This document shows, in pieces, positions 857-59,023 of a stretch of DNA of 64,000 nucleotides. A program made the position numbers and the translations under genes. Source of the stretch: Coffea arabica (taxonomy: Eukaryota > Streptophyta > Magnoliopsida > Gentianales > Rubiaceae); assembly GCF_036785885.1 (NCBI RefSeq), contig NC_092310.1:1116001-1180000 (forward strand), in the 5' to 3' direction. The stretch's first letter is position 1. Every line of letters starts with the position of its first letter. The notes below the pieces were generated by a model. That model made no database searches and was not told the origin of the DNA. It saw nothing but the letters and a program-made list of their open reading frames with translations.

Positions 857-1140
857 TGTTATGACCCAATTCCAGAAATGAAGAAAAGAATTGAGGTGGG
901 GTTTAGGGAAGAGATTAAAGTCAGAAATTAGGGAGAATGAGAAAGGCTTATTGATTTCATCTTCCAGAATGAATCCGTAGTACACGGGAGAAGCTTATTT
1001 ATCAAGCTTCTAGTCACTTCCTATAACAGAATAACTACTTGCTACTCTAGTCGGTTGAGCTGTAACTTCTCCAACTATCCTATGATATCAGAATATTGCC
1101 AAAACATAGCACTAATGGATTTATTATACAAGGCATAACA
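857..1140 (-). repeat. 3' LTR of the Reina-like element
   Basis: 284-bp direct repeat of 6104-6387 with TGTTATG/CATAACA inverted ends. A purine-rich tract (minus-strand AAGGGGGGCAA) sits directly next to it at 1141-1151. Confidence 0.93.
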
Positions 1141-2167
1141 TTGCCCCCCTTAAGAATCCTAGCCCCTACTCCCTAGGATTAAAATCTGGGAATTGTCCCT
1201 TGAGCACCGTCCAATCTTCCCATGTTGCTTCTGCAGGAGGCATGTTCACCCAATGCACCAGTACTTGAGTGATTGCAGAGTTTCCCCTCTTTATCATTCT
1301 TCTATCCAAGATGGCTTGAGGGGCCACCTTCACAGTGCCATCATCCATAACTTGAGGCAAACTACCACTCACGGATACACCCTTAGCAGTCCTTTTCAAC
1401 ATAGATACATGGAATACCGGATGAATGAGAGCATCTGCCGGTAACTCCAGTTTGTAAGCTGCCGGTCCAATCTTCTGTAAAATTTTAAAAGGCCTATAGT
1501 ATTTGGATGAAAGCTTCAGATTTCTTCTAAGTGCTATAGAGCTTTGTCTATATGGTTGAAGCTACAAGTACACCTTATCTCCTACTTCAAAACTTCTCTC
1601 CACCCTATGCTTATCTGCATTCTGCTTCATCCTATTCTGAGCTACCTCCAGATTTTCCTTCAACAGTCTATCCCAATCTTGTCTTTCCTTCACCCAATTT
1701 GCAGCAATTGAGGGGTTTTCTGCAGATGGCAACAAGCTAATTTGAGGGGGAGGATAACCATAAAGAGCCATGAAAGGAGTCATCTGTAAAGCCGAGTGGT
1801 AATTGGTGTTATACCACCACTCAGCTGCAGTCAACCATTGTCTCCATTTGGTGGGCTGCTGGAAGGTCATGCATCTTAGATAGGTCTCTAAGCACCTATT
1901 CAATCTTTCTGTCTGTCCATCAGATTGTGGATGGTAAGCAGATGATAAGCATAACTCGGTACCCACTTTTGAGAATAAGTCCTGCCAAAAAGCACTGGTA
2001 AAAACCTTGTCTCTATCTGAGACTATGCTAAGAGGTAGGCCATGTAATCTGTAAACATGATCAAAGAAGAGCTGAGCTACATCTTGAGCTGTGTAATTGC
2101 TAGTAAGGGATATGAAATGTCCATATTTGGAGAATCTGTCAATGACCACCAGAATGGTGTCATGCCC

Positions 2168-2563
2168 ATGGTTTAAAGTCACGGTCGCGGTCGCGGGCAC
2201 GGCCCGGAACGTTCCACATCGGTCTCGGCATATCAGTCGCGGTTTCGGTGAGACGCAAATTTTAAAGTATTTAATATTCTAAAAATTGTTAATAATATAA
2301 AAAAGTAGGCTAAATAAAAAAAATTAAAAAATAGCAAAAGAAATAGCCAAGTCAATCCGTCGCGGTGTGACTCGGCTGATTTCTCGTCTTGACTCGGGAT
2401 AACTCGGAGTAACTCGGTGTGACTCGGCCGAGTCAATCCGTCGCGGTGACGACTCGGCCGATTTCTCGGCGAGGCAAGTATTTCGGTATCGTTTCGTCAC
2501 GGTATCGCATCGGTAGGGGCCGACACGGTGACGTCTCGGTCTCGGCCGAGACTTCGAACCATG
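2168..2563. mobile_element. Nested GC-rich TIR element, Mutator-like MITE
   Basis: A 396-bp insertion in the integrase region of the Reina-like element. A perfect 9-bp duplication, GTCATGCCC, flanks it at 2159-2167 and 2564-2572. The ends are inverted: ATGGTTTAAAGTC at the left and ATGGTTCGAAGTC read inward from the right. A 9-bp duplication points to the Mutator superfamily. The inside is two GC-rich arms full of CGCGGT, ACTCGG and CTCGGCCGAG words around an A/T-rich centre. It has no coding capacity. A hAT or other superfamily is possible, since the termini do not match a family I can name. Confidence 0.75.
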
Positions 2564-5500
2564 GTCATGCCCCTTAGATTTGGGAAGTCCTTCTATAAAA
2601 TCCAGGGAAATATGCTGCCACGCTTGTTCAGGTATTAGTAAGGGTTGTAGTAGTCCCAGATATTTTCCTGACTCTGCTTTACTCCTTTTACAAGTATCAC
2701 AGGCCTGCACCATTTGTTCCACATCTCTTTTCATTCCTGGCCAGTAAAAATACAGCTTCATTCTATGATAGGTGCCACTATTACCGGAATGACCACCAAC
2801 TGGAGAATCATGCATGCATTCCATCAGCTTCCTCCTCAGATCAGTAGCATTCCCCACAAAAATTCTACCCTTGAACTTGATGATACCATGCTCATAAGTA
2901 TAATCTGTCGAAGAGACTCCATTAGTGGACAGATTTAGCAATAGTTCCTTAGCATTAGCATCTCCATTGTAGCTCTGAGTAACTTCCTGGAGCCATGCAG
3001 GCCTCACTACTGATATTGCATTCAATTCAATTTGCTCATTTTCACCCCTTCTTGACAAGGCATCAGCAACAATATTTTCCCTTCCCCTCCTGTACTGAAT
3101 CTCATAATCCATTCCCATCAGTTTAGAGAGCCATTTTTGTTGTAAGGGAGTAGTGATTCTCTGGTCTAGCACATATTTGAGACTTTCATGGTCCGTCTTA
3201 ATGATAAAATGTGCTCCCATCAAATAATGCCTCCATTTGGTCACTGCAACAATTAGGGACAGCAACTCCTTCTCATATATTCACATCCCAAGATTTTTAT
3301 TTGCTAGTACCTGACTCATATATGCTATTGGTCTTCCTTGTTGCATCAACACAGCTCCTAGAGCTTTTTGGCTGGCATCAGTCTCTAGGATGAAAGGTTT
3401 AGTAAAATCCGGTAATGCTAATACAGGGGTAGAACTCATGGCACATTTCAACTGGCAGAAAGCATTCTTAGCTTCGGTACTCCACTCAAAGGAATCTTTC
3501 TTTAACAAATCAGTCAAAGGTTTAGCTATCAACCCATAGCCCTTAACAAACCTTCGATAATACCCGGTCAACCCAAGAAAACCCCTTAATGCTTTGACAG
3601 AATCAGGTCGTGGCCAGGATACCATGCTCTCTACCTTTGTAGGATCAGTTACTACTCCATCCTTGGTGACGATGTGTCCCAAGTACTCAACCTGTGGCTG
3701 ACCAAAAGTGCATTTGGAGAGTTTGGCATAAAGTTTATGATATCTGAGAGTGTCCAGAACTTGTTTAAGGTGAATAAGATAGGTAGTCAAATCTGGGCTA
3801 TATACTAAAATATCATCAAAGAAGACTAATACGAATTTTCTGAGGAAAGGGCTAAAAATTGAATTCATGAGTGCTTGAAAGGTTGTCGGGGCATTAGTAA
3901 GCCCAAATGGCATAACAAGGAATTCAAACAATCCAGTGTGAGTTCGAAAGGCTGTTTTGGGTATATCATGGGGATGCATTCTGATCTGGTGATAACTAGA
4001 TCTGAGATCAATTTTGGAAAATACTTTGGAACCATGGAGCTCGTCCAAGAGATCATCAATGATAGGGATGTGAAATTTGTCCTTAATGGTGATTTCATTT
4101 AACTGTCTATAATCAATACAAAACCTCCAGGTTTCATCTTTTTTTTAACTAGCAAGACAGGTGAAGCGAAAGGGCTATGACTAAGCTGAATAATGCCATT
4201 AACTAGCATTTCCTGAACTTGTTTTTCAATTTCATTCTTATGAGTATGGGAATATCTATAAGGAATCAACTTGAAAGGTTTAGAATCTGGCTTAAGGGGT
4301 ATCTTGTGATCTAATTGTCTAACAGGGGGTAAGGTGGAAGGTTCTCCAAACACATCAGTATAATCAGCCAAGAGTGCACTTATGGAGTCATCAGTGTGAG
4401 ATGTTACCTCAGGAGTATCAACTGCTAGAACACAGGGCCTGCGGGAGAGTTTCTTTCTTCTTCCGTCTCAGAAACTTTTGGACAGTTTTTCCCTTCCTCA
4501 GTTTGATGTCTGTCTCTCTCAAATCTCCTTGTAGCTTCACTTCCTGCCCTCCTTGATTAAAGGAGAATTGTAGATGCTTGAAATCAAAAGTTACAGGACT
4601 GTGCTCTCTCATCCAATCGACCCCCAATACCATATCGTACGGCTCAATTGCAAGCACATATGCATCATGAGTGAATGTATGCCCTTGCATTTCCCAGGTC
4701 ATCCGTGGAACCCAGCTATTACACTGTAGCACCTGCCCATTAGCCACCTTGACTGCGAACAGTTTCCTTGGTACTACTAATTGAGGATTTTCCTCGAACA
4801 CTGAAGCTTTAACAAAAGTGTGAGAACTTCCTCCATCCAAAAATATTGAGAGCGGTTTCCCATTAAATTTCCCCTTCAGTTTGATAGTGCCCTGCAGCAG
4901 TTCACCAGTCATAGAGTGGATGGAAAATTCTACATCTTTATGACTACTGGCCCACTATATTCTATCACTTCCCCTTCGGTCAAGATTGATTCCTCCAATT
5001 TCCCTTTGTCTTCATCATCAACGAGTAACATGTGGATCCCCTTCCTACTACATACATGCCCGGGCCCATATCTATCCCCACATTTGAAGTACAAATTATT
5101 GGCCTTTCTGTACTGCAATTCTGATGGGGATATTTTCTGGAACATAGAGATCCCCCTCTTTTACTACTCTCGGCTCCTTCGAGAGCATGATTAACTCTAG
5201 GTGAAGGCAGAGCGAAGCTCTTGGGAGCCATCTTCTGTTTCTTGGTGAATAATTCAAAGGTCTTTTCCTGCATTCTCGCTGTCTCAAAGGCATCTAACAG
5301 AGTTCTTGTGCATTTTGACGGATATCTTGAGCTCTTCAGATAACCCACTCAAGAAGCAAGAGATAAAGAAAGGTTCTGTAAGTCCTGGGGTCTTGATCAA
5401 AACTCTAGCCTTGAGCTCTTCGAATTTCTCCTGATACGTTAAAACGGTGGAGGTTTGCTGCAATTTACTGAACTCTTCTACTGCATCATCTTGTCCCACT

Positions 5501-6089
5501 TCTCCAAATCTCTTTATGAGTGCTTCTTCAAACTCAGGCCAAGAAAGCTTACTTAGACCCATCTTGAACCCTTGAAACCATATATCTGCCTTATCCTCTA
5601 AATGCATTTCTATCACATCGAACCATTGTTCCTCTGCCACATGATATATATGAAAATATTTGATACATTTCCTCAGCCATTCTCGGGGATTTCCCCCTCT
5701 GAACAGAGGAAATTCCACCTTAGGAACAGGGGCGTGAAAATTCTTCCTTACTCCACGTTCTTGATGAGGCTCGTCCAACCAAATTACGTTCCGATTACCC
5801 GATCGATTTGGAGACTTCTCTGCGTTACTGCCGGGACCCAAAATTCCCTTATCTCCATTGATGGTTCGCATGAGATTGCCATATTGAGTAAACACAGTTG
5901 CTACTAGGGTCTTCAATTCTGCAGTGATAGTCTCCAGTCGTTCATCAGTCTGCTTCCTATTCAAAAGAGAATCTTCAATGAATTCCTGCAGTTTGTTCTC
6001 TTGACGTTTGATCTGTTCCTCCAGAGCTTTGAATCTTGTACCTTCGGCCATGATGGGCAATCAAAAGCTACTGAATCCGAGGATCAGTA

Positions 6090-6101
6090 GCTCTGATACC
6101 A
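6090..6101 (-). other. Primer binding site of the Reina-like element
   Basis: On the minus strand this reads TGGTATCAGAGC, complementary to the 3' end of plant initiator methionine tRNA, two bases inside the 5' LTR. It fixes the orientation of the element. Confidence 0.9.
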
Positions 6102-6103
6102 AA

Positions 6104-6387
6104 TGTTATGACCCGATTCCATAAATGAAGAAAAGAATTGAGGTGGGGTTTAGGGAAGAGAGAAAAGTCAGAAATTAGGGAGCATGAGAAAGGCTTATTG
6201 ATTTCATCTTCCAGAATGAATCCGTAATACATGGGAGAAGCTTATTTATCAAGCTTCTAGTCACTTCCTGTAACAGAATAACTAGTTGCTACTCTAGTCG
6301 GTTGAGCTGTAACTTCTCCAACTATCCTATGATATGAGAATACCGCCAAAACATAGCACTAATGGATTTATTATACAAGGCATAACA
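6104..6387 (-). repeat. 5' LTR of the Reina-like element
   Basis: 284-bp partner of 857-1140, followed by the second copy of the ATTTT target duplication. Confidence 0.93.
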
Positions 6388-8229: not shown

Positions 8230-9979
8230 TGACGGGTATTTTACATACGTGCAAGCTAAAAAAATACCGAATTACACCCGTTCACTGCAAGTATACAGAT
8301 CAACTAGTAGTTTAGGGTATATATCGGGTCGATCCCACAAGGAAGAGTGAACAATTACCGGTATTACTAAAGCTTCTCTATTATTTAGACTATCAACGAA
8401 TTATAGCAAATTAAAACCTATTGAAATTATACAAGAAAATAGCAAATAAAAGCTCCTTAGGTTGTGGCATCCCTAACTACTCATGCAAGTGCTATATTTG
8501 GATCATTTAGTACTACATCTAGGCTAGTTATGGTGTAATTTCTTTATGCATTTGAAACCTACTTTCGTAGTGAATCAACTATACTCATAACTAATCCATA
8601 CCTATTTTCATGGTTATGAAATTAGCTACAAGTTCATTTCTTCAATGAAATTACATGAAATGAATCACTAAAAACCACATAAGTGCACCTCTACTTTCGT
8701 GAGTGTACTCCTTATGTTTAGCACTTCTTGAACTAGTGTTAAATCTCAATTTTCATTGCAGAAACAACACCTTAGATCATCACAATCAATGGTACCAGAT
8801 TAATCATGATTTAAGAAGCCAAAGTGCTAAATAACTTGCTCAAATCATAGCAATCAAATAACCAAATAATAAACACTAACAATTATAGGAAGTTCAACCA
8901 AACCCAAGGCTTAAACTTTAGATACACATATTACACACAAAATCCAGAACTTGTATATTAACTAAACTTGGAATCAAATACAAAAGATAAAGAGTTTGGA
9001 AGGAATACAACCCTTGTCACATGAGCTTTCTTCCTTGCCTTCTTCATCCTCCATCTTCATCCTAATCTAGATAATAAACAAGAATGGATGAACTATACTA
9101 CTCTATACTAAGCTAAACTAATACTAGGAAGATGAAAGAGCTACATTTCTGCAGCTTCAAGCTTTCTCCCGTAGCTCACTCTCTATTTTTCTGCTATGAA
9201 CTCCAATCTCTGCTATCTACTCCAATCTCTTGCTCTATATTATTGGATCCCCTTCAATCTTGCAATCTTGGCTATTTTATGATGAAATATGGTCAAGAAA
9301 TGAGGATTACATCTCCCTTTTACAGCTGGGAATGTTTCTCACATGTATAGCATCACATGTGAGTTGGTGGAGGTGAAATTGAGTTTTACGCGTACAAAGC
9401 AGCCTTTTCTGACCACAATCCGGCCAGGAATAGCTCTGCTCCGATTTTGACTCAACTTCAACTGAACTTTTCTTGATGATAAAAGCTGATTTAGCTCTTG
9501 ACCAAAACATAAAACTTGTAGCCCTTTGAGTTAGCTTTCCAATGCATCAAGAATCACCTCATTTGGATCTGTGTAGGCTGAGAAATGACCGAAATACCCT
9601 TACCTGCTCATTGCCCTGTTCCAGTTTCGACCAGTAGAAATTTGCTATTGTAATTCGGCATTTTGACCTGGAAAACCTTCAAACTGGATTTAGATGTCTT
9701 CACCAAAGTTGTAGATCTATCTCTTATCTTCAAATTGGTTCAAGAATCATCTTAATCCGATCACTGTAGCTCAAGTTATAGCCGAAATACGAAAATGTGT
9801 CAAAACTGTCAAAATACACAAAATCCAAGTAAAAAGTGATAAAAACCTCATTTAATCACTTAAAAGCATTTTTCACCAATTATAGCCAAAATGATTCATA
9901 TTCTTCCAATAATATAACCAAAGTGACTAAAAATAATATAAAATATCATACAATTATTACGTAAATTAGTCACTTATCA
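8230..9979 (-). repeat. Complete 3' LTR of element T1
   Basis: 1750 bp, TG...CA termini, bounded by the ATGAG duplication on one side and a polypurine tract on the other. A TATA-like TAGTATAGTT (minus strand, around 9090-9100) lies 33-40 nt before position 9060, where the shared part with the right-hand repeat begins. This makes 9060 a reasonable transcript start (start of R). Confidence 0.8.
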
Positions 9980-10017
9980 AACTCCCCCACACTTAAATCA
10001 TTGCTTGTCCTCAAGCA
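9980..10017 (-). other. Polypurine tract and conserved GAGGACAAGC motif of T1
   Basis: On the minus strand this reads TTGAGGACAAGCAATGATTT then AAGTGTGGGGGAGTT, directly before the LTR. The same arrangement occurs at 57314-57350 in the second Tat-like element. Confidence 0.75.
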
Positions 10018-10336
10018 ATTCACACATAATCAAATGCAATGATTCAAGAGGTGAAACAATATATGCACTTTGTCCAATTTAATTCCTCAAGACTTGGAAA
10101 ATAATCATTATACAATTATTCAATTTACACTAAATACTCATAATATCAAGTAAAGGAAGATAATTATACCCTAAATTCAACAAGTTAAACTTAATCTCTT
10201 ACCCTAACTTAATTTTACAAATAAGCAAATCACATAGTCGATTTATAGCCTTTCTCCTCCTATAATCATCTTTTTCTCAAAATTTTACATCTAAGAGGGA
10301 TTTATTCATACTAATTTTACTTAATTAGTGAGAATG

Positions 10337-10480
10337 CCTTTTTACGCGAAAATCGACACTTTTAGGTGAAGATCCCCGGTTACTCAACATTTCACTTATT
10401 CAAGTTGCTAATGCATACTCTTAATTCAAGTACCTTTTTACGCGAATGTCGACATTTGTAGATGCCAACCCCCGGTTACT
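10337..10480 (-). repeat. Paired GTAACCGGG...TTCGCGT motif in T1
   Basis: Two blocks about 96 nt apart, each reading on the minus strand AGTAACCGGGG, a short gap, GTGTCGA or ATGTCGA, then TTCGCGTAAAAA. They occupy about 10337-10385 and 10432-10481. The same pair occurs at 56790-56928 in the second element, where the surrounding sequence is otherwise poorly conserved. Function unknown. Confidence 0.65.
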
Positions 10481-11094
10481 TGGTACGAGAATCATTGGAG
10501 TAGAACAAATTTTTTTTTTTTTTTACTTTCTTTTTTTCTCTTTTTTTTTCTTTTTTTTTTAATAAAAGACAATAAATAGATGTTCCCTCTTAGAAAATAT
10601 ATAAGACTACTCAAAGGAGGAGTATAACCTTATCGACTATATCAATCACTTACTTGCAAAATTAAGTAAAGAGAAGAAATCTCATTAAACATGTAAAATT
10701 ATAGGCATAATTTTCCTCACTTTATCCAATATATTTTCTAAAATGCAAAAATCCTAATTGCATAATACTATTTCCAAGTTAAATGAGGACTAAACCTTCC
10801 AAAATACATATAACATTTCAACAATTGGAAGAATAAGGTTGGAACAATTAGCCCTTTTTGAATGAAAATGCAAGAATTTGAAGAACTTTTGGGCCATAGT
10901 GAAATATTGGAAAAGATTTTAGAAAAATTTTTACAGAGTTTCTCCTTATAAATGGAAGAAAACTCCCTGCCAACAAACCTATTTTCTAGCAAATTATCCA
11001 CATGGCAAGCATTTCAAACACAATTCCAACATTTCCAAGCATTTAAATCCACAAAATATCATCACCTAGCAAGTAAATGCAAGTTTAAATATTT

Positions 11095-11131
11095 CCTCCC
11101 CCACACTTAAACTTCACATTGTCCTCAATGT
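11095..11131 (-). other. Second, internal polypurine-like motif of T1
   Basis: On the minus strand it reads ACATTGAGGACAATGTGAAG then TTTAAGTGTGGGGGAGG, a near copy of the tract beside the LTR about 1.1 kb away. A counterpart lies at 56319-56355 in the second Tat-like element. Confidence 0.6.
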
Positions 11132-12367
11132 GAGAAAAGGAAAATAAATAAAGAGTAAAAGAAAATACTGCTCAATTGAACTTGCGCAATCCGAATTCAT
11201 GTCCAAGTGATGAATTTCCAACCGTATTTGAGAAAGAGTGGAGAGTTCACTTATTGCACCCTGAAAAAGACAAAATCAAAACAAATAAATTTCTTAAAAA
11301 TAAAAGGTTGCAATCAACAAAATCATGCAATTCAAGGAAAAAGGAAAAATGATCAAGCATGTGGAACCATACAATGTTCAAGGGATAAAAACATGAAATG
11401 AGCTAATCTTTGCTAATCAAATATATGCATTAGTATCCAAAGCAAAGGGAAGCTAATTTCACACAAAAAATCCACAATCATGAACAAAATAAGTTCCATT
11501 TATACATTTTGTCATCAATGATCAAATCCCCGCAAGTACAAAAGCAATCTCAAAATGGAGACAAACACACCAAGCCAAAATATAAATGACCTTCTTGAAA
11601 ATTCATGAAATACTAAAAACTATTGAACCACAAGGATTATAAGTGCATTTATGAATTTCATCAATTAAGGCCATCTTCTCTTCTTTTAGAATTACCTAAG
11701 AATTCAAGAAATTATTCAACCAAACACCTTTTCATTCATTAGGTAATCTAAATTACTCACATGAATATCATAAACTCCCACAAAGCTAATTAAAATGCTA
11801 CATTGGCCACTTAATATGCAACTTGGTTATCAAGCCAAATTAAGCATAAAATTAGCAAAAATTCACCAAATAAGTACAATAAATGCAAATCACAAAATAT
11901 AGTTATCACTAACAATCACCAATAGCATCAATAAGCTCAAATAAATGCACTTAACTTCACATATTAAAAATTGCCTAAAAATGGCAAAATTCAAATAACA
12001 AAGTTAGGTGAAGAATTGTTACCTCAAGGTGGTTTGGTGATGTTTAGAGATGAATATGATGTGAAAACCCCCAAGAAACTTTCTCCAATTTGACCTCAAT
12101 TGAGTGATTTCAAGAAAGTAGAACCCTAACTAATGGTAAGCTTGAAACCACTTTAGAGTTGTTTTTGAAAAAATATGAACTATGAAATTCACTCTAGAGG
12201 ATGGAAGAAAGTGATTTGGTGAAGGTTATTTGAAGATTAAATGGTGAAAAGTGGTGTTTTAGTGAGTGGTGTGTGTTTGAGGTGTTAGTATGTGAGTTGG
12301 GTTGAAGAAGAAGGGAGAAAAATTGTGAAGAATCCGTGAAACGGATTCATCTTACGCTGGTTACTGT

Positions 12368-12690
12368 TCACAATCCGGCCAAAAATTGGAGGGATTCGTG
12401 GAGGGATTGCTGGAGGGATTCTGGGCAGAAATTTTTTTTTTTTTTTTTTTTTTTACTGTTGCATATCCGGCCAGTTTCTGGCCGGATTTCCCGCCGGATT
12501 TGCTACAGTGGATTTTTTTTTTTTTTTTTTTTTTTTACAATCCGGCCAGTTTTTGGCCGGATTTCAGGCCGGATTTTCGGCCGGATTCTGTCCAGAATGC
12601 TCGAAAAAATTTTCTTTTCTCCCCTAACTATCCGGCCTTCAATCCGGCCAACATTTGGCCGGATTTATGGCCGGATTTACTGCAGAAAAA
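12368..12690. repeat. GGCCGG-rich inverted/tandem motif cluster inside T1
   Basis: Four related blocks built from ATCCGGCCA..TGGCCGGAT inverted pairs and further GGCCGGATTT words, separated by T runs of 19-23 bases (near 12432 and 12513). Each CCGGCC/GGCCGG pair could fold into a short hairpin. It is non-coding and unlike the AT-rich surroundings. Confidence 0.7.
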
Positions 12691-13028
12691 GCTGTTTTCT
12701 GCAGTTTTTCCTCCCAATTTGCTTGGCCAACCTTCCACATTCAACCTACTTCATGTTCTTTGAATGAAATTCAAATTTAACATGATCATGCATGAATATA
12801 ACTTAAACATGAAACACCTTAAATGCATGAAATGCAGCAATTGAACATGAAAACTCCCTTTTTGCCTTAATATAAACACCTTTGCAATTGAGATCATTTG
12901 CATGAACTCTTGTCATTGCCACCTACAAAACACACAAAAACATTAATCGAACAACTAAAACTTACTAAAAACAAGCCAACATGAAGAAAAGTGGAGTTGA
13001 AAAGTGATCCAAGCCTTCGTTTTTAAAA

Positions 13029-13165
13029 GGATCCGAGGTCGTTTTAGAAAGGATCCGAGGTCGGATCATGATGATTGAGCTCGGATCAAGAAGCTCGAAT
13101 TTTTTCTGATTGCAGAAGTGGATCCGAGGCCTTGGATCCATATGGATCCGAGGCCTTGGATCCAT
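13029..13165. repeat. GGATCCGAGG tandem motif cluster inside T1
   Basis: Repeats of GGATCCGAGGTCG and GGATCCGAGGCCTTGGATCC, the latter partly palindromic and present twice in a row. It lies in the non-coding part just 3' of the gag-like frame in element orientation. Confidence 0.65.
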
Positions 13166-13544
13166 TGAATCTGCACTTATTGCAGAATTTTTGCAATTTT
13201 CAGTTTGACCTCAATTCTTCAAAATACACCATAGATCATTTCTATGTCAAAATAAACCATTCACGCACATGTAAAATGATCTAAACATGCATTCTAAACC
13301 TCTTTAATGCATCAAAAACCATAATTACTGAATTTGAGGTATTGAGATCTTTGATCAAACTTCGCCCTTTTCACCTCATTTGGTCACTTTTTCAAAACCT
13401 ACAAATGAAAAACAACAAAATTACTCAAACTTATACTTTAAACATAAAATCACTCCAAAGTAACACCAACTTAAACAAACATTGGGTTGCCTCCCAATAA
13501 GCGCTTCTTTAAAGTCAATAGCTTGACTATTTCTCCTCATTTTT

Positions 13545-14702
13545 TCAAGGAGGCTTTGTTAGCGAATAATCCACCATTTTTGGTCTTGGTGGATCATTAA
13601 ATGGTGACTTTATAGCAAAAGCCACATGATCTAATGATGTGAGAAATGAAAGTGACTTACCTATACCAAGTGTTTCATAGATATTACCTTGAATATGCAC
13701 CACTTGAGAACTTAACAAATGAAATGCCATGAAAGTATCTTGGGCAGGAATATCTTTAAAACCTGTACTTTTTATACACTCCTCAAGAGGGGTGAAAATT
13801 GAGCCATTAAAACTCACCTCTTGAGGTTCAAAGTTAGTTCCAAAGATATTATCATGTGAAATGGATATTTGCTCATTAAAACACTCTTGAGATTCATCAT
13901 TTTCATCAAAATGCAACCCATTTTCACATACAACATTCCCACCATTCATGCTAGGATCATTTTGCACATTATTAGAGGAAATAACTTCACACAATGCACT
14001 CAATTGCTCATGTATTCGACCAAAGTGAGAAGCTAATTCATCTATTCTTTCCTCAATCCTATCAAAACGATCGGAAGTTGCATTTGCTAGCTTTTCTAAT
14101 GCTAAATCAAATTGATTAGAAAAATTTTCTACAGCTAGCTCCCAAGATGCATTAGAATCATTAGCTAATGGTTCACTTTCTAACTCCCAAGGTAGAGGTG
14201 TATTAGCTAACTTCTCTATTGCCAACTCCCAAGATGGTTTTGATTCATATTGGACACTTTCAGGTTGGTGATCATAAAAATATGAATTATCACTATAAGT
14301 ACATTGATTATTCCAACCATAAGCAGGAGAATTGCTCCAATTAGCACTATATCGATCAAAACAGGGATTGTAATGCTCTAATTCATCATAATAATCCACA
14401 TTTTGTACTTGCATACATGTATTAGTAACATGATGACCTCCACACAAGTCACAAATCACATAATAAGAATTAAAAGCATTAACATTCCTCCCTTGCTCAA
14501 TTTCATGCATAATTGTGTCCATTTGAACTTGTAACATGATTACATCAACTTTTTCCTTTAAACACTTCAAACCATCTTCATAAGACATACCTCTAGTAAT
14601 TTCTTGGTTACCTCTATTGAAAGAGCTTTGCACTTGGTAACCATCCATTTCCAATCTTCCACTTCTCAAGCATTGTCCTCCAAATTGACCTACCCTTCTC
14701 AT
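13545..14702 (-). CDS. Gag-like protein of element T1
   Basis: An open frame of 385 codons in a fossil element. A zinc-knuckle-like motif, CDLCGGHHVTNTC (C-x2-C-x3-H-x4-C), sits at residues 84-96. It is followed by an acidic Asn/Ser-rich region and a repeated stretch with ANxxWELxxEKL-type words (about residues 150-215). It corresponds in position and general design to the frame at 53343, but overall similarity is low. No protease or polymerase follows it, which is why the element is called non-autonomous. The exact role of these short Gag-like proteins is not known to me. Confidence 0.6.
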   Translation of the reverse strand: MRRVGQFGGQCLRSGRLEMDGYQVQSSFNRGNQEITRGMSYEDGLKCLKEKVDVIMLQVQMDTIMHEIEQGRNVNAFNSYYVICDLCGGHHVTNTCMQVQNVDYYDELEHYNPCFDRYSANWSNSPAYGWNNQCTYSDNSYFYDHQPESVQYESKPSWELAIEKLANTPLPWELESEPLANDSNASWELAVENFSNQFDLALEKLANATSDRFDRIEERIDELASHFGRIHEQLSALCEVISSNNVQNDPSMNGGNVVCENGLHFDENDESQECFNEQISISHDNIFGTNFEPQEVSFNGSIFTPLEECIKSTGFKDIPAQDTFMAFHLLSSQVVHIQGNIYETLGIGKSLSFLTSLDHVAFAIKSPFNDPPRPKMVDYSLTKPP

Positions 14703-14718
14703 TACCTAAAATTGCTTT

Positions 14719-15431
14719 TGAACAATTACCGGTATTACTAAAGCTTCTCTATTATTTAGACTATCAACGAATTATAGCAAATTAAAACCTATTGAAATTA
14801 TACAAGAAAATAGCAAATAAAAGCTCCTTAGGTTGTGGCATCCCTAACTACTCATGCAAGTGCTATATTTGGATCATTTAGTACTACATCTAGGCTAGTT
14901 ATGGTGTAATTTCTTTATGCATTTGAAACCTACTTTCGTAGTGAATCAACTATACTCATAACTAATCCATACCTATTTTCATGGTTATGAAATTAGCTAC
15001 AAGTTCATTTCTTCAATGAAATTACATGAAATGAATCACTAAAAACCACATAAGTGCACCTCTACTTTCGTGAGTGTACTCCTTATGTTTAGCACTTCTT
15101 GAACTAGTGTTAAATCTCAATTTTCATTGCAGAAACAACACCTTAGATCATCACAATCAATGGTACCAGATTAATCATGATTTAAGAAGCCAAAGTGCTA
15201 AATAACTTGCTCAAATCATAGCAATCGAATAACCAAATAATAAACACTAACAATTATAGGAAGTTCAACCAAACCCAAGGCTTAAACTTTAGATACACAT
15301 ATTACACACAAAATCCAGAACTTGTATATTAACTAAACTTGGAATCAAATACAAAAGATAAAGAGTTTGGAAGGAATACAACCCTTGTCACATGAGCTTT
15401 CTTCCTTGCCTTCTTCATCCTCCATCTTCAT
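14719..15431 (-). repeat. Partial right-hand end repeat of element T1
   Basis: 713 bp matching 8348-9060 with a single difference (near 15227), directly followed by the second ATGAG. It represents the middle (R-like) portion of the 1750-bp LTR. Confidence 0.85.
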
Positions 15432-51726: not shown

Positions 51727-51731
51727 ATTTT

Positions 51732-53230
51732 TGATAGGTTATAATTTGTTACTACATTTATAATTATTTTTCCCCTTTATTTTAGCCAAATATTATTTTA
51801 ATTGTCGGATTCTACTTATATTTGATTAATGGTGCCAATTGTAGGAAAAGGAGCAAAACGTGATTAAAAGTGGCATTTTTCCAATTAATTTGATGGTGGC
51901 ACGTTCGGGATCGATTTCCAAGTTCGATTCAAACTCTGGGCAGCTTTAAAGGAAGATTTGGAAGACTTGAATTCTAATTACTAGTCTTATTGTTGAATTA
52001 GGAAACTTGAAATACTTTCTTTTGTGGTTTATTTTGCTATTTAGGAAACTAGTTCTATTTGGTAGTATTTTTTCATTAGGAAACTAAGGAGAAAAAGCCA
52101 CGGTGGTGGACCTTTGTATTTGGGGCTTTGGCTAATTTGGGAGAAAACAAAGCAAAGAAAAGAAAAAGACGGATTCGCGGGATTGGTAGCAGCAGGGCCA
52201 GTTAAGAAGTTGGGTCCACGTGAACCAGATGCATGGGATTAGGACCCTTAGACAAAGCCTAACTCCCAGACGTTTTTACTTCTCTGCTGGCGGCGCTACT
52301 TGGAGAATATAAAAAGGAAAAGCCAGATTCACGTTTGGGGCGATTAGCTTTTAGTTTTCTTTCTCCCTGTCAGACGCCTTTTTCCTTTTGACTTTCTCTC
52401 CGCAGCCGACTTTTGGGAAGGGAGAAAACATTAGAAAAGCTGGGATTGTTTTATTTTCGCACGGCTGGTTCTCCATTAATGGAGAACTAGCTTCCTAATT
52501 CTGGTTAAGGGACAATTGAAGATTTGGTTCGACAATTACTGTGAGATCTAAATTATTTTAATTATTTTCTTCATTTATTGGTATTTATATGTTTCCTATT
52601 TTTAATTGCTATAGCCTTGTGTATGATTGATTAGTGCGCAATAATTAATTATTCATATAGGCTATTTTGCTAAATAGGGGTAATTGAATCCGTAATTGTT
52701 CGTTATCTCTGTCTTAGTAGCAACTGGCATAATTGGGTTTATGTCAGGGGAACATACGATCTATCTTAAACAAACCCTCTTAGCGTGTTTGTTAGTTAGG
52801 ATTGGGCCTTTCTAATTCTTAATGCAATCTAGAAATTAAATCCTACGGTCGTACCTAGGGTTGTTTTTAGATTAGAGAAATAGCTAACGGTCGTACCTTA
52901 TCTATCGATAAATTAAGGAAGGGTTGGTTGTTTATCGCGTGCATGACAACTATAACTAATCTATTAATAAATGTGGAATTATCTGCGAATCGATGATCAG
53001 TGCATGAATCATTTCTGAAGTGTACCATTGGCTAAAGTTTCTCTTAATCAATTATTTTCTGCAGTTAATTTATTTAGTTAGTATTTAATCCAAAAACCCC
53101 TAATACTTTGGACTTTAGAAGAAACGAATTATCCCCAGTCCCTGTGGATTCGACCCTACTCATCGCTATATACAAAATCTGTATTTTTCTCGAGTAGGTA
53201 TTTATTATTGTACAGGTTCGGCACCTGTCA
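51732..53230 (+). repeat. 5' LTR of element T2
   Basis: 1499 bp with TG...CA ends. It contains GGAGAATATAAAAAGG near 52300, a good TATA box for the element's promoter. Confidence 0.92.
52303..52315 (+). promoter_or_regulatory. TATA box in the T2 LTR
   Basis: AATATAAAAAGG in the 5' LTR; the same sequence occurs in the 3' LTR near 57923. It places the U3/R border shortly downstream. Confidence 0.55.
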
Positions 53231-53235
53231 ATTTT

Positions 53236-53253
53236 TGGCGCCGTTGCCGGGGA
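53236..53253 (+). other. Primer binding site of T2
   Basis: TGGCGCCGTTGCCGGGGA, five bases after the LTR. This primer site is typical of the Tat/Athila group of plant Gypsy elements. Confidence 0.8.
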
Positions 53254-53342
53254 CTGGTGCCAGATTAATTTGTTTCTTTTTGGGTTCATCTTGTTTTTAT
53301 TTTTTTATTTATATTTTTTTCTTATTTTTTTCATTATAGTTT

Positions 53343-54401
53343 ATGGCTTCTAACACTCCGTATTTTGGTGATATAATGGATTTTGTTTCCGGGGAAGGCG
53401 ATGAGACTAGTTTTTTTGCTAAGTTTGCATATGCAGAGGCAATAAACTCTATTAGAGAAAGAATGGCTGCTGCAACCTGTAAAATTTGTTATGCCAGGGA
53501 TCATTCAACCGGTATGTGCCCCGAATATCAAGATAATCTGAGTGTCCCACTCAATAATTATGGAGATTTTTCACGCTGGTCTCAAACGTGGTATGACCCT
53601 TATTCAAATGGGTATGAGCAAGGATGGTGGGATGATTCCAATTTTAATTATCAACAAAGGCCAATAGATTTTCAACAGCTAGAGTCTCAAGAACCGTCAT
53701 CCATGTCAGGTATGTCTCTTGAAGAAATGGTTGAATTAATAGCTACTAACACATATCAAATTCAACAGGAGGTACATCAACTTCAACAGGAGACACAAAA
53801 GATGAGTGAAGAGATGAAAGAAAGAAGGCGTGAATGGGCATCTAAAATGAGCAAATTGATTTCTCCAGTTTATGAAGAATTGCCCTCACCGACTATTATC
53901 GACCATGAGGAAGATGAGAGTGCAATTATTCTGACAAATAACATGGTACTGCAAGAGTTTCAAGAAGAAGAATCTAAAGATGCAGTTGAAAAGAAAGTTG
54001 AAGCGCAAGAATTGAGACCCCAACATCAAATCACTCAAGTGAATGAATCCAGTGAACAATCTCCAAATGCGGTGACATCTCCTCCATTCCTTGATCAATA
54101 TTTTCCTGACTCTTATTCTTTAATTCCTGTTAGTGAGATTGATTTTATTATACCAGAAAATTTTGAGTTTCATGCCAGGAATAAGTTAAGAGTCATGATG
54201 GCAAAATATCTCAAACCAGTAAGTGCTTGTGATGGAGGAGTGAATGAAGATTTGAGGTCATTACTTGGTTGTTTGGCGCCATCTACTAGTCCATGGAAGA
54301 CCGTAGCTCGTGTGCTCAAGAATTACTCTATTTACGAGAGCTATCAGGATTACATAAAAGATGAAGCACTGAAGCGAGCTACGCGATTTTATCCTCCATG
54401 A
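53343..54401 (+). CDS. Gag-like protein of element T2
   Basis: An open frame of 352 codons in a fossil element. The zinc knuckle CKICYARDHSTGMC (C-x2-C-x4-H-x4-C) is at residues 46-59. A Tyr/Trp/Asp-rich stretch follows (about 70-105), then a Gln/Glu-rich coiled coil (about 130-170) and an acidic region. A pyrimidine-rich run ending TTTTTTCATTATAG directly precedes the ATG and looks like a 3' splice site, so leader splicing before gag is possible. The frame is the counterpart of the one at 13545-14702 but only weakly similar. Confidence 0.6.
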   Translation: MASNTPYFGDIMDFVSGEGDETSFFAKFAYAEAINSIRERMAAATCKICYARDHSTGMCPEYQDNLSVPLNNYGDFSRWSQTWYDPYSNGYEQGWWDDSNFNYQQRPIDFQQLESQEPSSMSGMSLEEMVELIATNTYQIQQEVHQLQQETQKMSEEMKERRREWASKMSKLISPVYEELPSPTIIDHEEDESAIILTNNMVLQEFQEEESKDAVEKKVEAQELRPQHQITQVNESSEQSPNAVTSPPFLDQYFPDSYSLIPVSEIDFIIPENFEFHARNKLRVMMAKYLKPVSACDGGVNEDLRSLLGCLAPSTSPWKTVARVLKNYSIYESYQDYIKDEALKRATRFYPP

Positions 54402-54552
54402 ATAAACAGGACAATGTCTAGCCAAAGACATTAAAGAAAGGCGCTACTTGGGAGGCAACCCAAGACTATTTGTTTCAGTTTTCATGCATTTTTGAAGTTT
54501 TAGTTAAGTGTTAGTGTCAATTAATAGTTTGATGTTTGGTGGCAGGAAAATA

Positions 54553-54815
54553 GCAGTTGGACGTGCCCACGCCAGGTGGTCACGCCTGAGGGAAAGAAAT
54601 TTTCGTTCAGGATCTGCGGATTCTATAGCAGTTGGACGTGCCCATGCCAGGTGGTCACGCCTGAGGGGAAGAAATTTCGTGCAGGTTCTGCGGACTCTAT
54701 AGCAGTTAAGCGTGCCCACGCCAGGTGATCACGCCTGAGGGGAAGAAATTTCGTGCAGGTTCTGCGGACTCTATAGCAGTTAAGCGTGCCCACGCCAGGT
54801 GGGGCACGCTAAAGA
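54553..54815 (+). repeat. 75-bp tandem repeat inside T2
   Basis: Units start at about 54553, 54628, 54702 and 54776 with GCAGTTGGACG or GCAGTTAAGCG followed by TGCCCACGCCAGGTG and a CACGCCTGAGG block. A decayed extra half-unit lies near 54853. Tandem arrays after the coding part are common in Tat-type elements. Confidence 0.85.
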
Positions 54816-55014
54816 GCCAAAAATTTTCGACGGATGGTCAAATGACTAAGGGCAGTTAGGCATGCCCACGCCTGAGACAGGGGTTGCTTGTCTCTAACAA
54901 AAAAAAAAAAAAAAAAAAAATTCTTCAAAGGGCACGAAGCCCTACTCTTTTCTTCTTCTTCTTCTTCTTTCTTTTTCTTTCTTTTTCCCTTTCTTTCTTT
55001 TTCTTCTTGCATCT

Positions 55015-55460
55015 TTCTCGGCCGCCACTTGCGCGCCGCCGCCGCTCGCCCACCAACCAGCAACCTCGTCGCGCGCCGTGCCTCCTCCGCCGGCGGCTGT
55101 CCGAGCGCCATCCTCAGTGCGCGCTGTCAGCACTCACCCAATCTCAGCGCGCCCCCTCGCAGCAGCCAGTCCGCGCGACTCAGCCCTTCGTTCAGCAACC
55201 AGGCGACCATCGCGCGGCAGCAGCCAGCGCGCGCAATCCAGGTGCAAGACCCAGCTGAGCCAGCAGCAGCAGCGCGCGCATGACCAGAGCAGGGACCATC
55301 AGCCGCAACAGCCATCAGCAACCTGCCACGTGCAACTCCAGCTCCTCTCCAGGCGCAGGCCAGCAGACCCCTTGCGCACTCCTCTGCGCCTCTGCCCACG
55401 CGCGTGGCTCTTACGCGCGTCGCACCTTTCTCCTCCACTGCTCTCTTCACTGTCATCCAC
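55015..55460. other. GC-rich stretch inside T2, possible captured host DNA
   Basis: About 450 bp of strongly GC-rich sequence with many GCGCGC, GCCGCC and CAGCAGCAG words, following an A run (54899-54920) and a CTT microsatellite (54950-54990). Frames are open in several phases on both strands, as GC-rich low complexity allows, so no coding claim is made. T1 has nothing equivalent. Confidence 0.55.
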
Positions 55461-55947
55461 TGCCTACTCCAAACCTCCGGTGAACTCTTTCTTTATTTTT
55501 CTGTCGCTAAGTAGCTGAGGCCAGATTACTAGCTTTTATTAGCTGATGTCAGATTTTAATTTCTTAGCTGAGGCCAGATTTTTGATTTGCTAGCTGAGGA
55601 CAGAAAATTTGTGCTTGTTTGGGTGCTGTGACATATCCATGGATTGATTGTTGATTATTTGGTTAACGTTGTGCCCAACCAGTGATATTTGGGGAAAGTT
55701 TTTACTCTAGTTGCCTGTTTTGTGGGAATTTTGCTATGTTTATCTAATTAATTTTTGGGTTGAATTGGTAGTATTTGGGAAAAATTTGTCGTTCACAGGT
55801 TTAATTAGTTTTTGGGGTAAGTTTATTATCCGTTTCTGCACTTGGTTGTGATTGGGAGTTGTGACTGGGGATCATTTGCCTTGTTGGTTATTTGTTGACA
55901 TATTTTGAACACCATTACTTTGCCTTTGTCTTGTCCACTGATCTCCA

Positions 55948-56244: not shown

Positions 56245-56318
56245 TTCAATTCTGCCCTCCTCCGTTTTAAGGGAAGTGTCGTTGCCCCAATATCCCTGTT
56301 TTGCTCTTTCTTTGCTTA

Positions 56319-56355
56319 CATTGAGGGCAATGCAAGATTTAGGTGTGGGGGGAGT
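56319..56355 (+). other. Internal polypurine-like motif of T2
   Basis: ACATTGAGGGCAATGCAAGA then TTTAGGTGTGGGGGGAG. Near copy of the terminal tract (57314-57350) about 1 kb downstream and of 11095-11131 in T1. Confidence 0.6.
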
Positions 56356-56789
56356 AGTATATTGGCATTTTATTGAAAAAGTGCAAGTGTAGGCATTTTT
56401 GTTGGAATTTTTTGTTTGACTTAGTTGAATTTTATCTAATTTTTGCCTATCTTTGTGCATATTTGTGATTATTCCTGATAAACGATGGTTAGATGTCTCC
56501 AATTTTTCTACTGCCAAGATTTTATACTCTAAGGTGTTAAGTATGACATGGTTAAGTTTAAGGGTATCTCTTTGGTGAATATTTGAGACTTTGTGACTTT
56601 TGCACTTTTTGGTTAACTCTTCTAAGCATTGTAAATATTTGTCTAGCATTTTTTTTGTGCAAATTGGTTCAACTATTAATTTTAGTTCTCCATGTTTAGG
56701 AAATGAAGCGGGTTTGTGTGGTATTTAGTTTTATTTTTGGTGCTTATTTATGAATAGTATTAGGCTATACTCCGCTAGTATCGTTGCCT

Positions 56790-56928
56790 AGTAACCGGGA
56801 GTTTTCACCACAAATGTCGACTTTCGCGTCAAAAAGCGACGATAGCTATGAGTATGTGGTTTTTAAGCGATGATGGCTGAGTAACCGGGCTCCTTCATAT
56901 GGCCAATGTCGGAGTTCGCGTCAAAATG
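56790..56928 (+). repeat. Paired GTAACCGGG...TTCGCGT motif in T2
   Basis: Two blocks about 90 nt apart: AGTAACCGGGAG, gap, AATGTCGACTTTCGCGTC (56790-56835) and AGTAACCGGGCT, gap, AATGTCGGAGTTCGCGTC (56880-56928). They match the pair at 10337-10480 of T1. No frame is shared, so conservation is at nucleic-acid level. Confidence 0.65.
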
Positions 56929-57313
56929 CTTGAATGGCTAAAAACTAAGCGTTCCCCCTAAAAAAAAAAAAAATCATCATTCATGTGTGGGGATATTCTA
57001 GAAAAAAAATATGTGCTAATAGTGAAAAATATGGAAGTGTTTGAATGAATTGTTAACCCGCTGATCCCTGAATTTTAATGTTGAGATTTTGCTTGATAGT
57101 TGAACCATTTGCTTTTGGATGCGGGTTGTATATTTTATATCCTTAGATTAGTTAGTCATAAATTGAAAGAGTTCTTGATCTTGAAAGCTAACTGGAGAGA
57201 TATTTCTTGCAAATTGCCACTAATACTTGATATGTATTTTAATTGTATTTTGGCAATAGAAGATTTGAGCAATAGTCATTGTTTGAATTCGATTGCTTGA
57301 TTTGTTGTTCTCA

Positions 57314-57350
57314 TGCTTGAGGACAAGCATGGTTTAGGTGTGGGGGAAAT
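57314..57350 (+). other. Terminal polypurine tract of T2
   Basis: TGCTTGAGGACAAGCATGG then TTTAGGTGTGGGGGAAAT, immediately before the 3' LTR; CTTG..CAAG can pair as a small hairpin. Confidence 0.8.
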
Positions 57351-58848
57351 TGATAGGTTATAATTTGTTACTACATTTATAATTATTTTTCCCCTTTATT
57401 TTAGCCAAATATTATTTTAATTGTCGGATTCTACTTATATTTGATTAATGGTGCCAATTGTAGGAAAAGGAGCAAAACGTGATTAAAAGTGGCATTTTTC
57501 CAATTAATTTGATGGTGACACGTTCGGGATCGATTTCCAAGTTCGATTTAAACTCTGGACAGCTTTAGAGGAAGATTTGGAAGACTTGAATTCTAATTAC
57601 TAGTCTTATTGTTGAATTAGGAAACTTGAAATACTTTCTTTTGTGGTTTATTTTGCTATTTAGGAAACTAGTTCTATTTGGTAGTATTTTTCCATTAGGA
57701 AACTAAGGAGAAAGCCACGGTGGTGGACCTTTGTATTTGGGGCTTTGGCTAATTTGGGAGAAAACAAAGCAAAGAAAAGAAAAAGACGGACTCGCGGGAT
57801 TGGTAGCAGCAGGGCCAGTTAAGAAGTTGGGTCCACGTGAACCAGATGCATGGGATCAGGACCCTTAGACAAAGCCTAACTCCCAGACGTTTTTACTTCT
57901 CTGCTGGCGGCGCTACTTGGAGAATATAAAAAGGAAAAGCCAGATTCACGTTTGGGGCGATTAGCTTTTAGTTTTCTTTCTCCCTGTCAGACGCCTTTTT
58001 TCCTTTTGACTTTCTCTCCGCAGCCGACTTTTGGGAAGGGAGAAAACATTAGAAAAGCTGGGATTGTTTTATTTTCGCACGGCTGGTTCTCCATTAATGG
58101 AGAACTAGCTTCTTAATTCTGGTCAAGGGACAATTGAAGATTTGGTTCGGCAATTACTGTGAGATCTAAATTATTTTAATTATTTTCTTTATTTATTGGT
58201 ATTTATATGTTTCCTGTTTTTAATTGCTATAGCCTTGTGTATGATTGATTAGTGCGCAATAATTAATTATTCATATAGGATATTTTGTTAAATAGGGGTA
58301 ATTGAATCCGTAATTGTTCGTTATCTCTGTCTTAGTAGCAACTGGCATAATTGGGTTTATGTCAGGGGAACATACGATCTATCTTAAACAAACCCTCTTA
58401 GCGTGTTTGTTAGTTAGGATTGGGCCTTTCTAATTCTTAATGCAATCTAGAAATTAAATCCTACGGTCGTACCTAGGGTTGTTTTTAGATTAGAGAAATA
58501 GCTAACGGTCGTACCTTAGCTATCGATAAATTAAGGAAGGGTTGGTTGTTTATCGCGTGCATGACAACTATAACTAATCTATTAATAAATGTGGAATTAT
58601 CTGCGAATCGATGATCAGTGCATGAACCATTTGTGAAGTGTACCCTTGGCTAAAGTTTCTCTTAATCAATTATTTTCTGCAGTTAATTTATTTAGTTAGT
58701 ATTTAATCCAAAAACCCCTCATACTTTGGACTCTAGAAGAAACGAATTATCCCCAGTCCCTGTGGATTCGACCCTACTCATCGCTATATACAAAATCTGT
58801 ATTTTTCTCGAGTAGGTATTTATTATTGTACAGGTTCGGCACCTGTCA
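57351..58848 (+). repeat. 3' LTR of element T2
   Basis: 1498 bp partner of 51732-53230. Confidence 0.92.
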
Positions 58849-59023
58849 ATTTTCCCGAAACACGGAAAATGCAATGTATTATTGTTCATGGAATTAGTGC
58901 ACTAACAAAGGGTCCAAAATAATGTATGATTCGGAGTAACTTAGACAGGAGATCAATGTGTAAACTAGGGATCCAATTATTTATGCACCCTGAAGCTCCT
59001 TTGGAGGGTATTACGTACCCATA

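What the first reader, a model, noticed from the sequence alone, without database searches (positions are those of the whole stretch)
9980..11131. Shared 3' module in two Tat-like elements: double polypurine motif enclosing a conserved motif pair (T1 copy)
In element T1 (minus strand) the terminal polypurine tract (9980-10017) has a near copy 1.1 kb inward (11095-11131). Between them lie two AGTAACCGGGG...TGTCGA...TTCGCGTAAAAA blocks 96 nt apart. T2 has the same order and spacing (see 56319-57350). The rest of the internal sequence of T1 and T2 is poorly conserved and no frame covers the module, so selection on RNA or cDNA function is likely. Candidates are a second plus-strand priming site, a packaging or dimerisation signal, or a border left by an ancestral LTR. 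I do not recognise it from described elements.
Basis: partly seen in the sequence, partly recalled or inferred. Interest (0 to 1): 0.72.

Follow-up and report, generated by a model that had tools for sequence, protein, structure and literature searches.

The report
Conserved RNA rod in plant retrotransposons
The 3' non-coding end of a group of plant retrotransposons is predicted to fold, as RNA, into a long rod topped by two near-identical small hairpins whose base pairs were kept by compensating mutations, which points to an RNA signal that the elements probably need in order to move.

Summary
T1 and T2 are coding-depleted elements best placed in the Athila lineage, not Tat. Between two polypurine units lies a ~1 kb non-coding linker that differs almost completely between T1 and T2. 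In both, and in four further families, the sense RNA is predicted to fold into one long imperfect hairpin. A structure learned from some families predicts pairs in others, and changes that keep pairing on the sense strand (G-U) outnumber the mirror class (A-C), 37 to 8 columns in the largest split. So selection acts on RNA structure. An element with gag, RNase H, integrase and ATHILA-ORF pieces carries the same module; T1 and T2, without recognisable pol, keep it whole, so it probably acts in cis. A sister group (5 elements) has the double PPT and a structured linker with other hairpin boxes. The extra PPT was already known; for the rod and twin hairpins I found no description (Rfam; 10 searches of open-access papers; the key 2002 paper was not readable). 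Function is inferred. One plant genome only.

The parts
9980..10019 (-). T1 terminal PPT unit: mini-hairpin ATTGCTTG-AGGA-CAAGCAAT (10000-10019), then the purine tract (9982-9993); the LTR starts at 9979
10050..10312 (-). T1 right arm of the long hairpin (limits approximate, read from the fold)
   Evidence: fold; group B covariation
10326..10396 (-). T1 apical hairpin 2 (core 10344-10384)
   Evidence: model R1 85.6 bits, (member of the training set)
10422..10492 (-). T1 apical hairpin 1 (core 10440-10480)
   Evidence: model R1 76.7 bits, (member of the training set)
10510..10560 (-). T1 A-rich tract at the apex of the rod
10570..10837 (-). T1 left arm of the long hairpin (limits approximate, read from the fold)
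   Evidence: fold; group B covariation
11092..11132 (-). T1 internal PPT unit: mini-hairpin CACATTG-AGGA-CAATGTG (11115-11132), then the purine tract (11092-11108)
8230..9979 (-). T1 3' LTR
13545..14702 (-). T1 gag-like ORF with a zinc-knuckle-like CxxC..H....C; no Pfam match
   Evidence: 'gag-like' rests on the knuckle-like motif and position only
51731..53230 (+). T2 5' LTR (98.5% identical to the 3' LTR)
53236..53253 (+). T2 primer binding site TGGCGCCGTTGCCGGGGA, 5 nt after the LTR
   Evidence: complement of tRNA-like sites in this genome
53343..54401 (+). T2 gag-like ORF with a zinc-knuckle-like motif; no Pfam family above its cut-off
56317..56354 (+). T2 internal PPT unit: mini-hairpin TACATTG-AGGG-CAATGCA, then the purine tract
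56475..56790 (+). T2 left arm of the long hairpin (limits approximate)
56778..56847 (+). T2 apical hairpin 1 (core 56790-56829)
   Evidence: R1 66.6 bits, (training set)
56868..56939 (+). T2 apical hairpin 2 (core 56880-56921)
   Evidence: R1 66.2 bits, (training set)
57055..57285 (+). T2 right arm of the long hairpin (limits approximate)
57312..57349 (+). T2 terminal PPT unit: mini-hairpin CATGCTTG-AGGA-CAAGCATG, then the purine tract
57350..58853 (+). T2 3' LTR

Best explanation
Supported by computation: the linker between the two PPT units of these Athila-lineage elements is under selection to fold, on the transcribed strand, into a long imperfect rod-like hairpin. Two small hairpins, 90-96 nt apart, stand at its apex. 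Each has an outer stem of free sequence, an invariant internal loop (AGUA opposite four or five mostly A's), a stem with tandem G-U pairs and a bulged C, a UU/UC internal loop (varied in some copies) and a CA..UG closing stem. Inferred: it is a cis-acting element of the genomic RNA. The rod presents the twin hairpins as a two-site dock for an RNA-binding protein. Most likely that protein takes the full-length, unspliced RNA through export or stabilisation (works like a constitutive transport element, about 0.35) or through Gag packaging or dimerisation (about 0.3). Each PPT unit at the ends of the linker has its own AGGA-loop mini-hairpin; the terminal one should prime the plus strand before the LTR, and the internal one may prime a second plus strand ahead of the structured region. 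Confidence that it is a selected RNA structure acting in cis is about 0.9; the figure below is for the whole statement, including a protein dock serving export or packaging.
For: Fold energy against 40 dinucleotide shuffles each: z -10.2 (T1), -7.4 (T2), -7.9 (L037). Consensus fold of 9 modules (59-95% identical): -182.1 against -52.7 +/- 5.0 in 16 column shuffles; 145 pairs spanning over 250 nt against 31; 31 of them with changes on both sides against 4.7 (max 9). Group B (T1+T4, 12 modules): -254.8 against -118.5 +/- 7.4 (8 shuffles); two-sided long-range pairs 15 against 4.6 (max 9). Held-out test: 115 long-range Watson-Crick pairs learned on T2/T3 are paired in T5/T6 in 556 of 663 cells (84%), slid by 1-3 nt 36-46%; the reverse split gives 169 of 198 (85%), slid 36-53%. 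By columns, G-U outnumbers A-C 37:8 (p 1.5e-5), 16:2, 17:7, 35:11 and 36:15; 6:4 in the smallest split. Block hairpin, 42 sequences, 19 pairs: 93.7% of cells paired against 31-46% when slid; covariation 0.447 against at most 0.120 slid and 0.227 shuffled. L085+L087 carry gag, RNase H, integrase and ATHILA-ORF pieces upstream of the module; T1, T2 and L083, with no recognisable pol in 4.1-4.7 kb internal regions, keep the module whole.
Against: No experiment; one plant genome only. The alignments were made by sequence and the families share ancestry, so cells are not independent. Part of the G-U excess is base composition: in slid controls G-U to A-C by cells is about 2.7 and 2.5 to 1. T2's sense and antisense folds have similar z (-5.3 and -5.5 with 16 shuffles). 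In the sister group (L084, L088-L091) two-sided long-range pairs do not exceed the shuffles (5 against 5.1). None of these five has an AGTAACC hairpin by model R1, so the blocks are not universal in Athila. Block control (a): the number of pairs with two-sided change (9 against 8.4) and of pair types (31 against 31.1) is not above shuffles; only the cell-based measures are. Nothing here separates export from packaging, stability or translation.
Confidence: 0.55

Rival explanations
1. Reverse-transcription element: the linker and its two PPT units serve plus-strand synthesis; the rod brings the PPTs together, or the internal PPT primes a second plus strand with a central-flap-like product.
For: Two PPT units flank the blocks at all 19 distinct places fetched by block pattern alone. 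Each unit has its own AGGA-loop-like mini-hairpin, the full stem intact in 10 of 15 internal and 12 of 15 terminal copies tabulated. An extra PPT is reported for Athila4 and Calypso (PMC2829016, passages).
Against: It does not explain why two apical hairpins with an invariant internal-loop face are kept; the internal PPT is not followed by an LTR-like TGATA start in the copies listed.
Confidence: 0.12
2. Packaging or dimerisation signal: element-encoded Gag binds the twin hairpins, and non-autonomous copies keep them to be packaged in trans.
For: Coding-depleted T1, T2 and L083 keep the whole module; a related clade uses other hairpin boxes at the same place, as expected if the partner is clade-specific.
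Against: The module would also lie on any spliced env-like RNA, so alone it would not single out the genome (inference). Untested.
Confidence: 0.3
3. DNA-level palindrome or remnant inverted repeat (foldback insertion) without RNA function.
For: The arms are inverted repeats; the antisense strand also folds better than shuffles in T1, T2 and L083 (z -5.5, -5.5, -2.5).
Against: Compensatory changes, and G-U over A-C on the sense strand in held-out families; the arms of T1 and T2 show no similarity by blastn yet both keep the fold.
Confidence: 0.04
4. Translation enhancer in the 3' region, or an RNA-stability element like ENE.
For: 3' position; an ENE occurs in a long 3' spacer of the plant retrotransposon Evade and raises its mobility (PMC12501189, abstract start and passages). 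An A-rich tract lies near the apex in all 12 type-A modules listed.
Against: U-rich/U-rich internal loops, which define ENE, are absent from the folds of 3 of 7 modules (L037, L013, L085); T1, L083 and L084 have one each and T2 four (positions not aligned with each other). No Rfam match of relevance at E <= 1.
Confidence: 0.15

Closest known systems
Extra PPT in the linkers of Athila4 and Calypso (Wright and Voytas 2002, as cited in PMC2829016; the 2002 paper itself not readable)
   Same: Athila-lineage element with a second PPT in the linker upstream of the terminal one
   Different: The passage seen mentions only the extra PPT: no rod, no twin hairpins. Whether the 2002 paper shows more I could not check.
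Sirevirus conserved 3' junction (PMC2829016, passages)
   Same: Conserved non-coding 3' motifs, multiple PPTs, an inverted repeat near the PPT
   Different: Ty1/copia; on average four identical octamer PPTs; ~28-bp inverted repeat spanning the LTR border; no kilobase rod or twin hairpins in the passages seen
Constitutive transport element of Mason-Pfizer monkey virus (PMC7551171, passages)
   Same: Retroelement RNA stem-loop with two internal loops; that each binds one receptor and that it lies between env and 3' LTR is recalled
   Different: 150-175 nt, one stem; here a rod of about 0.8 kb with two separate hairpins; no sequence link shown, partner unknown
RTE of IAP and MTE of musD (PMC12786077, passages)
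   Same: cis RNA elements for export of full-length retrotransposon RNA
   Different: Mouse elements; [quoted passage not shown]
ENE of Evade/Copia93 (PMC12501189, passages)
   Same: Fold-back RNA in a long spacer before the 3' LTR of a plant retrotransposon that raises mobility
   Different: Needs U-rich internal loops facing each other; not a constant feature here

Membership tests
Athila lineage (Ty3/gypsy) | PBS complementary to tRNA-Asp, starting 5 nt after the LTR (as in Diaspora/Calypso, PMC1142308 passages) | tested here: met
   T2: LTR-ATTTT-TGGCGCCGTTGCCGGGGA; L083, L086 and L087 have it with one change each. Its complement plus T-arm has 47 exact genome sites. In T1 no such PBS is found with up to 4 changes.
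Athila lineage (Ty3/gypsy) | ATHILA ORF-1 domain (PF03078), present in 16% of Athila elements (PMC6317226, passages) | tested here: met
   Of 92 scored PF03078 places I looked downstream of 6; all 6 have the double-PPT linker: 1 type A (L085), 5 type B (L084, L088-L091). Not found in T1 or T2 themselves (ORFs).
Athila lineage (Ty3/gypsy) | Reverse transcriptase clusters with Athila in a tree | not tested
   No RT found in T1 or T2; no intact RT domain among the L087 and L086 pieces scanned; no tree made.
   L087: only RT_RNaseH/RT_RNaseH_2, then Integrase_H2C2 about 0.3 kb on. Tested on one relative, not on T1 or T2.
Constitutive transport element | Structured cis RNA with duplicated binding-type sites in the 3' part of the genome | tested here: met
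   Two hairpins 90-96 nt apart in 37 of 37 distinct block-bearing module sequences held; architecture only
Constitutive transport element | Recruits an export receptor and exports unspliced RNA | not testable with these tools
   needs binding and export assays
ENE | U-rich internal loops facing each other, flanked by G-C pairs | tested here: not met
   None in 3 of 7 folds; one to four in the other 4, positions not aligned. Not met as a constant feature.
Any Rfam family | Match to a curated model | tested here: not met
   6 loci, 4,227 models, E <= 1: one irrelevant sub-threshold hit in L013 (27.9 bits, gathering 100)

The most novel reading that the evidence does not exclude
Athila-lineage elements carry a previously undescribed class of RNA element: a viroid-like, imperfect kilobase-scale rod with a pair of apical docking hairpins that acts as a constitutive export and/or packaging platform, the first such element known in plant retrotransposons. 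Different Athila clades swap the docking hairpins (AGTAACC type or GGCGTGCC type) while keeping the rod-and-double-PPT frame, and non-autonomous copies survive by keeping this module. The imperfect pairing of the rod may keep it from being diced.
Probability: 0.3. Interest if true: 0.85.

Novelty: new variant of a known kind. Interest (0 to 1): 0.64.

Why it matters
Athila elements are called plant endogenous retroviruses (PMC1142308, passages), yet how plant LTR retrotransposon RNA is exported has not been studied directly (2025 review PMC12786077, passages). A compact hairpin with 1,907 exact pattern matches in this genome, invariant loops and two copies per element is a ready bait for finding the host or element protein that handles this RNA. 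It also gives annotators a marker for coding-depleted Athila elements, which are hard to classify, and offers an explanation for why they keep their 3' linkers.

Tried and rejected
Tat membership: rejected (see membership test). Ancestral LTR border: not supported, because the linker is predicted as one fold bounded by PPT units. DNA palindrome: disfavoured. ENE: not met as a constant feature. Rfam: nothing relevant. Relatives outside this genome: viral contigs 0 matches; prokaryote contigs 14, judged chance. No plant genome other than the window's own could be searched. Literature: the block sequence is held by 26 papers, none relevant by title among the 20 listed; other searches. Reading miR854/Athila fold-backs as a related case led nowhere (one paper listed, not opened). 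PMC2410132 (How Athila survive) has none of the terms PPT, polypurine, non-coding, untranslated or packaging in its main text. Two false block matches in L002 were dropped before alignment A1; four first blocks missed by that pattern were added. In one search four of seven planned shuffle tests did not run because the script failed; 16-shuffle tests of L083 and L084 came later, L013 and L085 were never shuffled singly. The T1 window copy alone against other T1-family copies gives G-U:A-C 16:9, not significant, as expected for decay after insertion. For coding content only some ORF pieces were scanned: 7 of L087/L085, 4 of L086 and 3 of L083; for T1 and T2 one ORF each; T2 has further stop-free runs of up to 206 codons that were not scanned.

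Full report
WHAT IS THERE. The window is G000:C1:1116001-1180000 of an unnamed 1.2-Gb genome; that it is a plant follows from its elements and genes. T1 (minus strand, insertion about 8230-15431) and T2 (plus strand, 51731-58853) are LTR elements in which no pol was found. T2 has LTRs 98.5% identical, the LTR-ATTTT-TGGCGCCGTTGCCGGGGA junction and one gag-like ORF. T1 has a comparable ORF (weak similarity, BLASTP E 0.007) and a damaged 5' LTR.

NOT CHANCE. The block pattern has 1,907 exact matches in the genome and none for the reversed control. All 38 loci L001-L038, standing for 19 distinct places, have the blocks between two PPT units (9 of the 19 places are one tandem array). All 37 distinct block-bearing module sequences held have exactly two blocks, spaced 90, 91, 95 or 96 nt. 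The T1 and T2 modules have 3,815 and 2,938 first-look candidates; the 40 scored of each are at least 91% and 90% identical to the query.

THE BLOCKS ARE HAIRPINS. In the minimum-energy folds of T1 and T2 all four blocks take closely similar shapes. On 42 distinct blocks from six families (T1; T2/L038; L037; L013 and its array; L001/L002/L083/L086; L005/L085; module identities), a 19-pair hairpin is paired in 93.7% of cells, against 31-46% when the partners are slid by 1-3 columns. The covariation score is 0.447 against at most 0.120 slid and 0.227 +/- 0.012 shuffled. The outer stem has two-sided changes at 5 of 6 pairs, the inner stem at 4 of 13 (columns 23-25 and 31). Invariant or at least 90% constant are the internal-loop letters AGUA and AAAA, the bulged C and the CA..UG closing pairs; the tandem G-U pairs hold in 41 and 33 of 42. 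Two counts, pairs with two-sided change and number of pair types, do not exceed the shuffles; I report them as such.

THE REST IS A ROD. The region around the blocks, which looks poorly conserved, folds into one long imperfect hairpin with the blocks at its apex. Energies are far below dinucleotide shuffles: z -10.2, -7.4 and -7.9 for T1, T2 and L037, 40 shuffles each. For nine aligned modules the consensus energy is -182.1 against -52.7 +/- 5.0 in 16 column shuffles; 145 pairs span more than 250 nt against 31 in shuffles, and 31 of these changed on both sides against 4.7 (max 9). For 12 modules of T1 and T4: -254.8 against -118.5 +/- 7.4 (8 shuffles), and 15 two-sided long-range pairs against 4.6 (max 9).

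RNA, NOT DNA. Pairs learned on T2/T3 alone hold in 556 of 663 cells of T5/T6, slid pairs in 36-46%; the reverse split gives 169 of 198, slid 36-53%. Where one side changed, G-U (paired in the sense RNA) beats A-C (its mirror on the other strand) in 37 against 8 columns, and in 16:2, 17:7, 35:11 and 36:15 in other splits; the smallest split gives 6:4. Base composition favours G-U on this G- and T-rich strand: in slid controls the ratio by cells was about 2.7 and 2.5 to 1, so part of the excess is composition. The sense strand is the more stable one in all 11 modules folded both ways. By z score (16 shuffles) sense against antisense is -11.0/-5.5 in T1, -10.7/-2.5 in L083, -3.7/-0.7 in L084, but -5.3/-5.5 in T2, which shows no strand difference.

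PPT UNITS. Each PPT is preceded by a mini-hairpin with an AGGA-like loop: CATTG/CAATG before the internal tract, GCTTG/CAAGC before the terminal one, with outer pairs varying; the full stem is intact in 10 of 15 internal and 12 of 15 terminal copies tabulated.

WHICH ELEMENTS. Of 92 scored PF03078 (ATHILA ORF-1) places I looked downstream of six; all six have the double-PPT linker. One, L085 with its upstream neighbour L087, has gag, RNase H, integrase and the ATHILA ORF (24.5 bits, cut-off 20.2) and the full type-A module; the frames are interrupted and no intact RT domain was found in the pieces scanned. The other five (L084, L088-L091) form a sister group: PPT units 1.3 kb apart and a long structured linker, but no AGTAACC hairpin by model R1. 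In its place are GGCGTGCCCACGCC boxes, two of them 84-94 nt apart in four elements and one in L091. Their consensus fold is better than shuffles (-248.0 against -191.4 +/- 5.1, 8 shuffles; long-range pairs 217 against 73), but two-sided long-range changes are not (5 against 5.1), so the RNA case is weaker there. The share of each type in the genome is unknown.

HOW IT PROBABLY WORKS. The module is non-coding, lies on the genomic RNA in front of the 3' LTR, is kept by elements without recognisable pol, and shows a conserved loop face twice. This is the anatomy of a cis-acting RNA dock. Export or stability, as with the MPMV CTE or IAP RTE (PMC7551171, PMC12786077, passages), and packaging or dimerisation are both open. 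I put export/stability slightly ahead because the element sits in the 3' region that any spliced RNA would share, and packaging close behind because the dock differs between clades. The internal PPT may prime a second plus strand; an extra PPT in Athila4 and Calypso is known (PMC2829016, passages).

LIMITS. That the rod and hairpins are undescribed rests and Rfam, which cover open-access papers only. Of the papers cited I saw the abstract and passages (PMC11963269) or passages only (PMC1142308, PMC2829016, PMC2410132, PMC6317226, PMC7551171, PMC12786077, PMC12501189).

Noticed in passing
13468-13553 (-), 54393-54480 (+); L087:7843-7895, L086:7838-7887, L083:~2640-2691: A second conserved non-coding island right after the gag-like stop codon in T1 and T2 and right after the integrase ORF in L086/L087: a small hairpin (AATGTC..GACATT in T2) followed by TTGGGAGGCAACCCAA, which can also form a hairpin. 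Looks like another cis RNA element at the pol/env-like junction.
   Followed up: partly
8230-15431: T1's 5' LTR matches only positions 9060-8348 of its 3' LTR (99.86% over 713 nt) and lacks the first ~0.9 kb and the U5 end; no Athila-type PBS follows. Yet ATGAG lies on both sides of the insertion. Could be a truncated cDNA or later deletions.
   Followed up: partly
G000:C10:40615315-40709972: Tandem array of T1-family modules, 15 copies listed at about 6.68-kb steps, probably elements sharing LTRs head to tail.
   Followed up: no
G000:C1:1208354-1279588 and ~3.3-kb step arrays at C1:16995277, 20385686, 25849082, 34877522: Tandem arrays carrying the blocks or the AGTAACCGGGG word: nine copies at ~8.9-kb steps, and several arrays at ~3.3-kb steps, hinting that the linker may seed satellite-like repeats.
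   Followed up: no
16000-51000 and 59000-60000: Tandem array with ~9.2-kb period carrying germin-like (cupin) genes on the minus strand (two of the nine ORF copies were scanned).
   Followed up: no
857-6387: A separate Ty3/gypsy element (gag, RT, RNase H, integrase pieces; minus strand) with 284-nt LTRs 95.8% identical, frames interrupted.
   Followed up: no
L088:2129, L089:2127, L090:1814, L091:2089: GGCGTGCCCACGCC-like boxes also occur about 170-210 nt after the terminal PPT, inside the 3' LTR of four sister-group elements, in addition to those in the linker.
   Followed up: no
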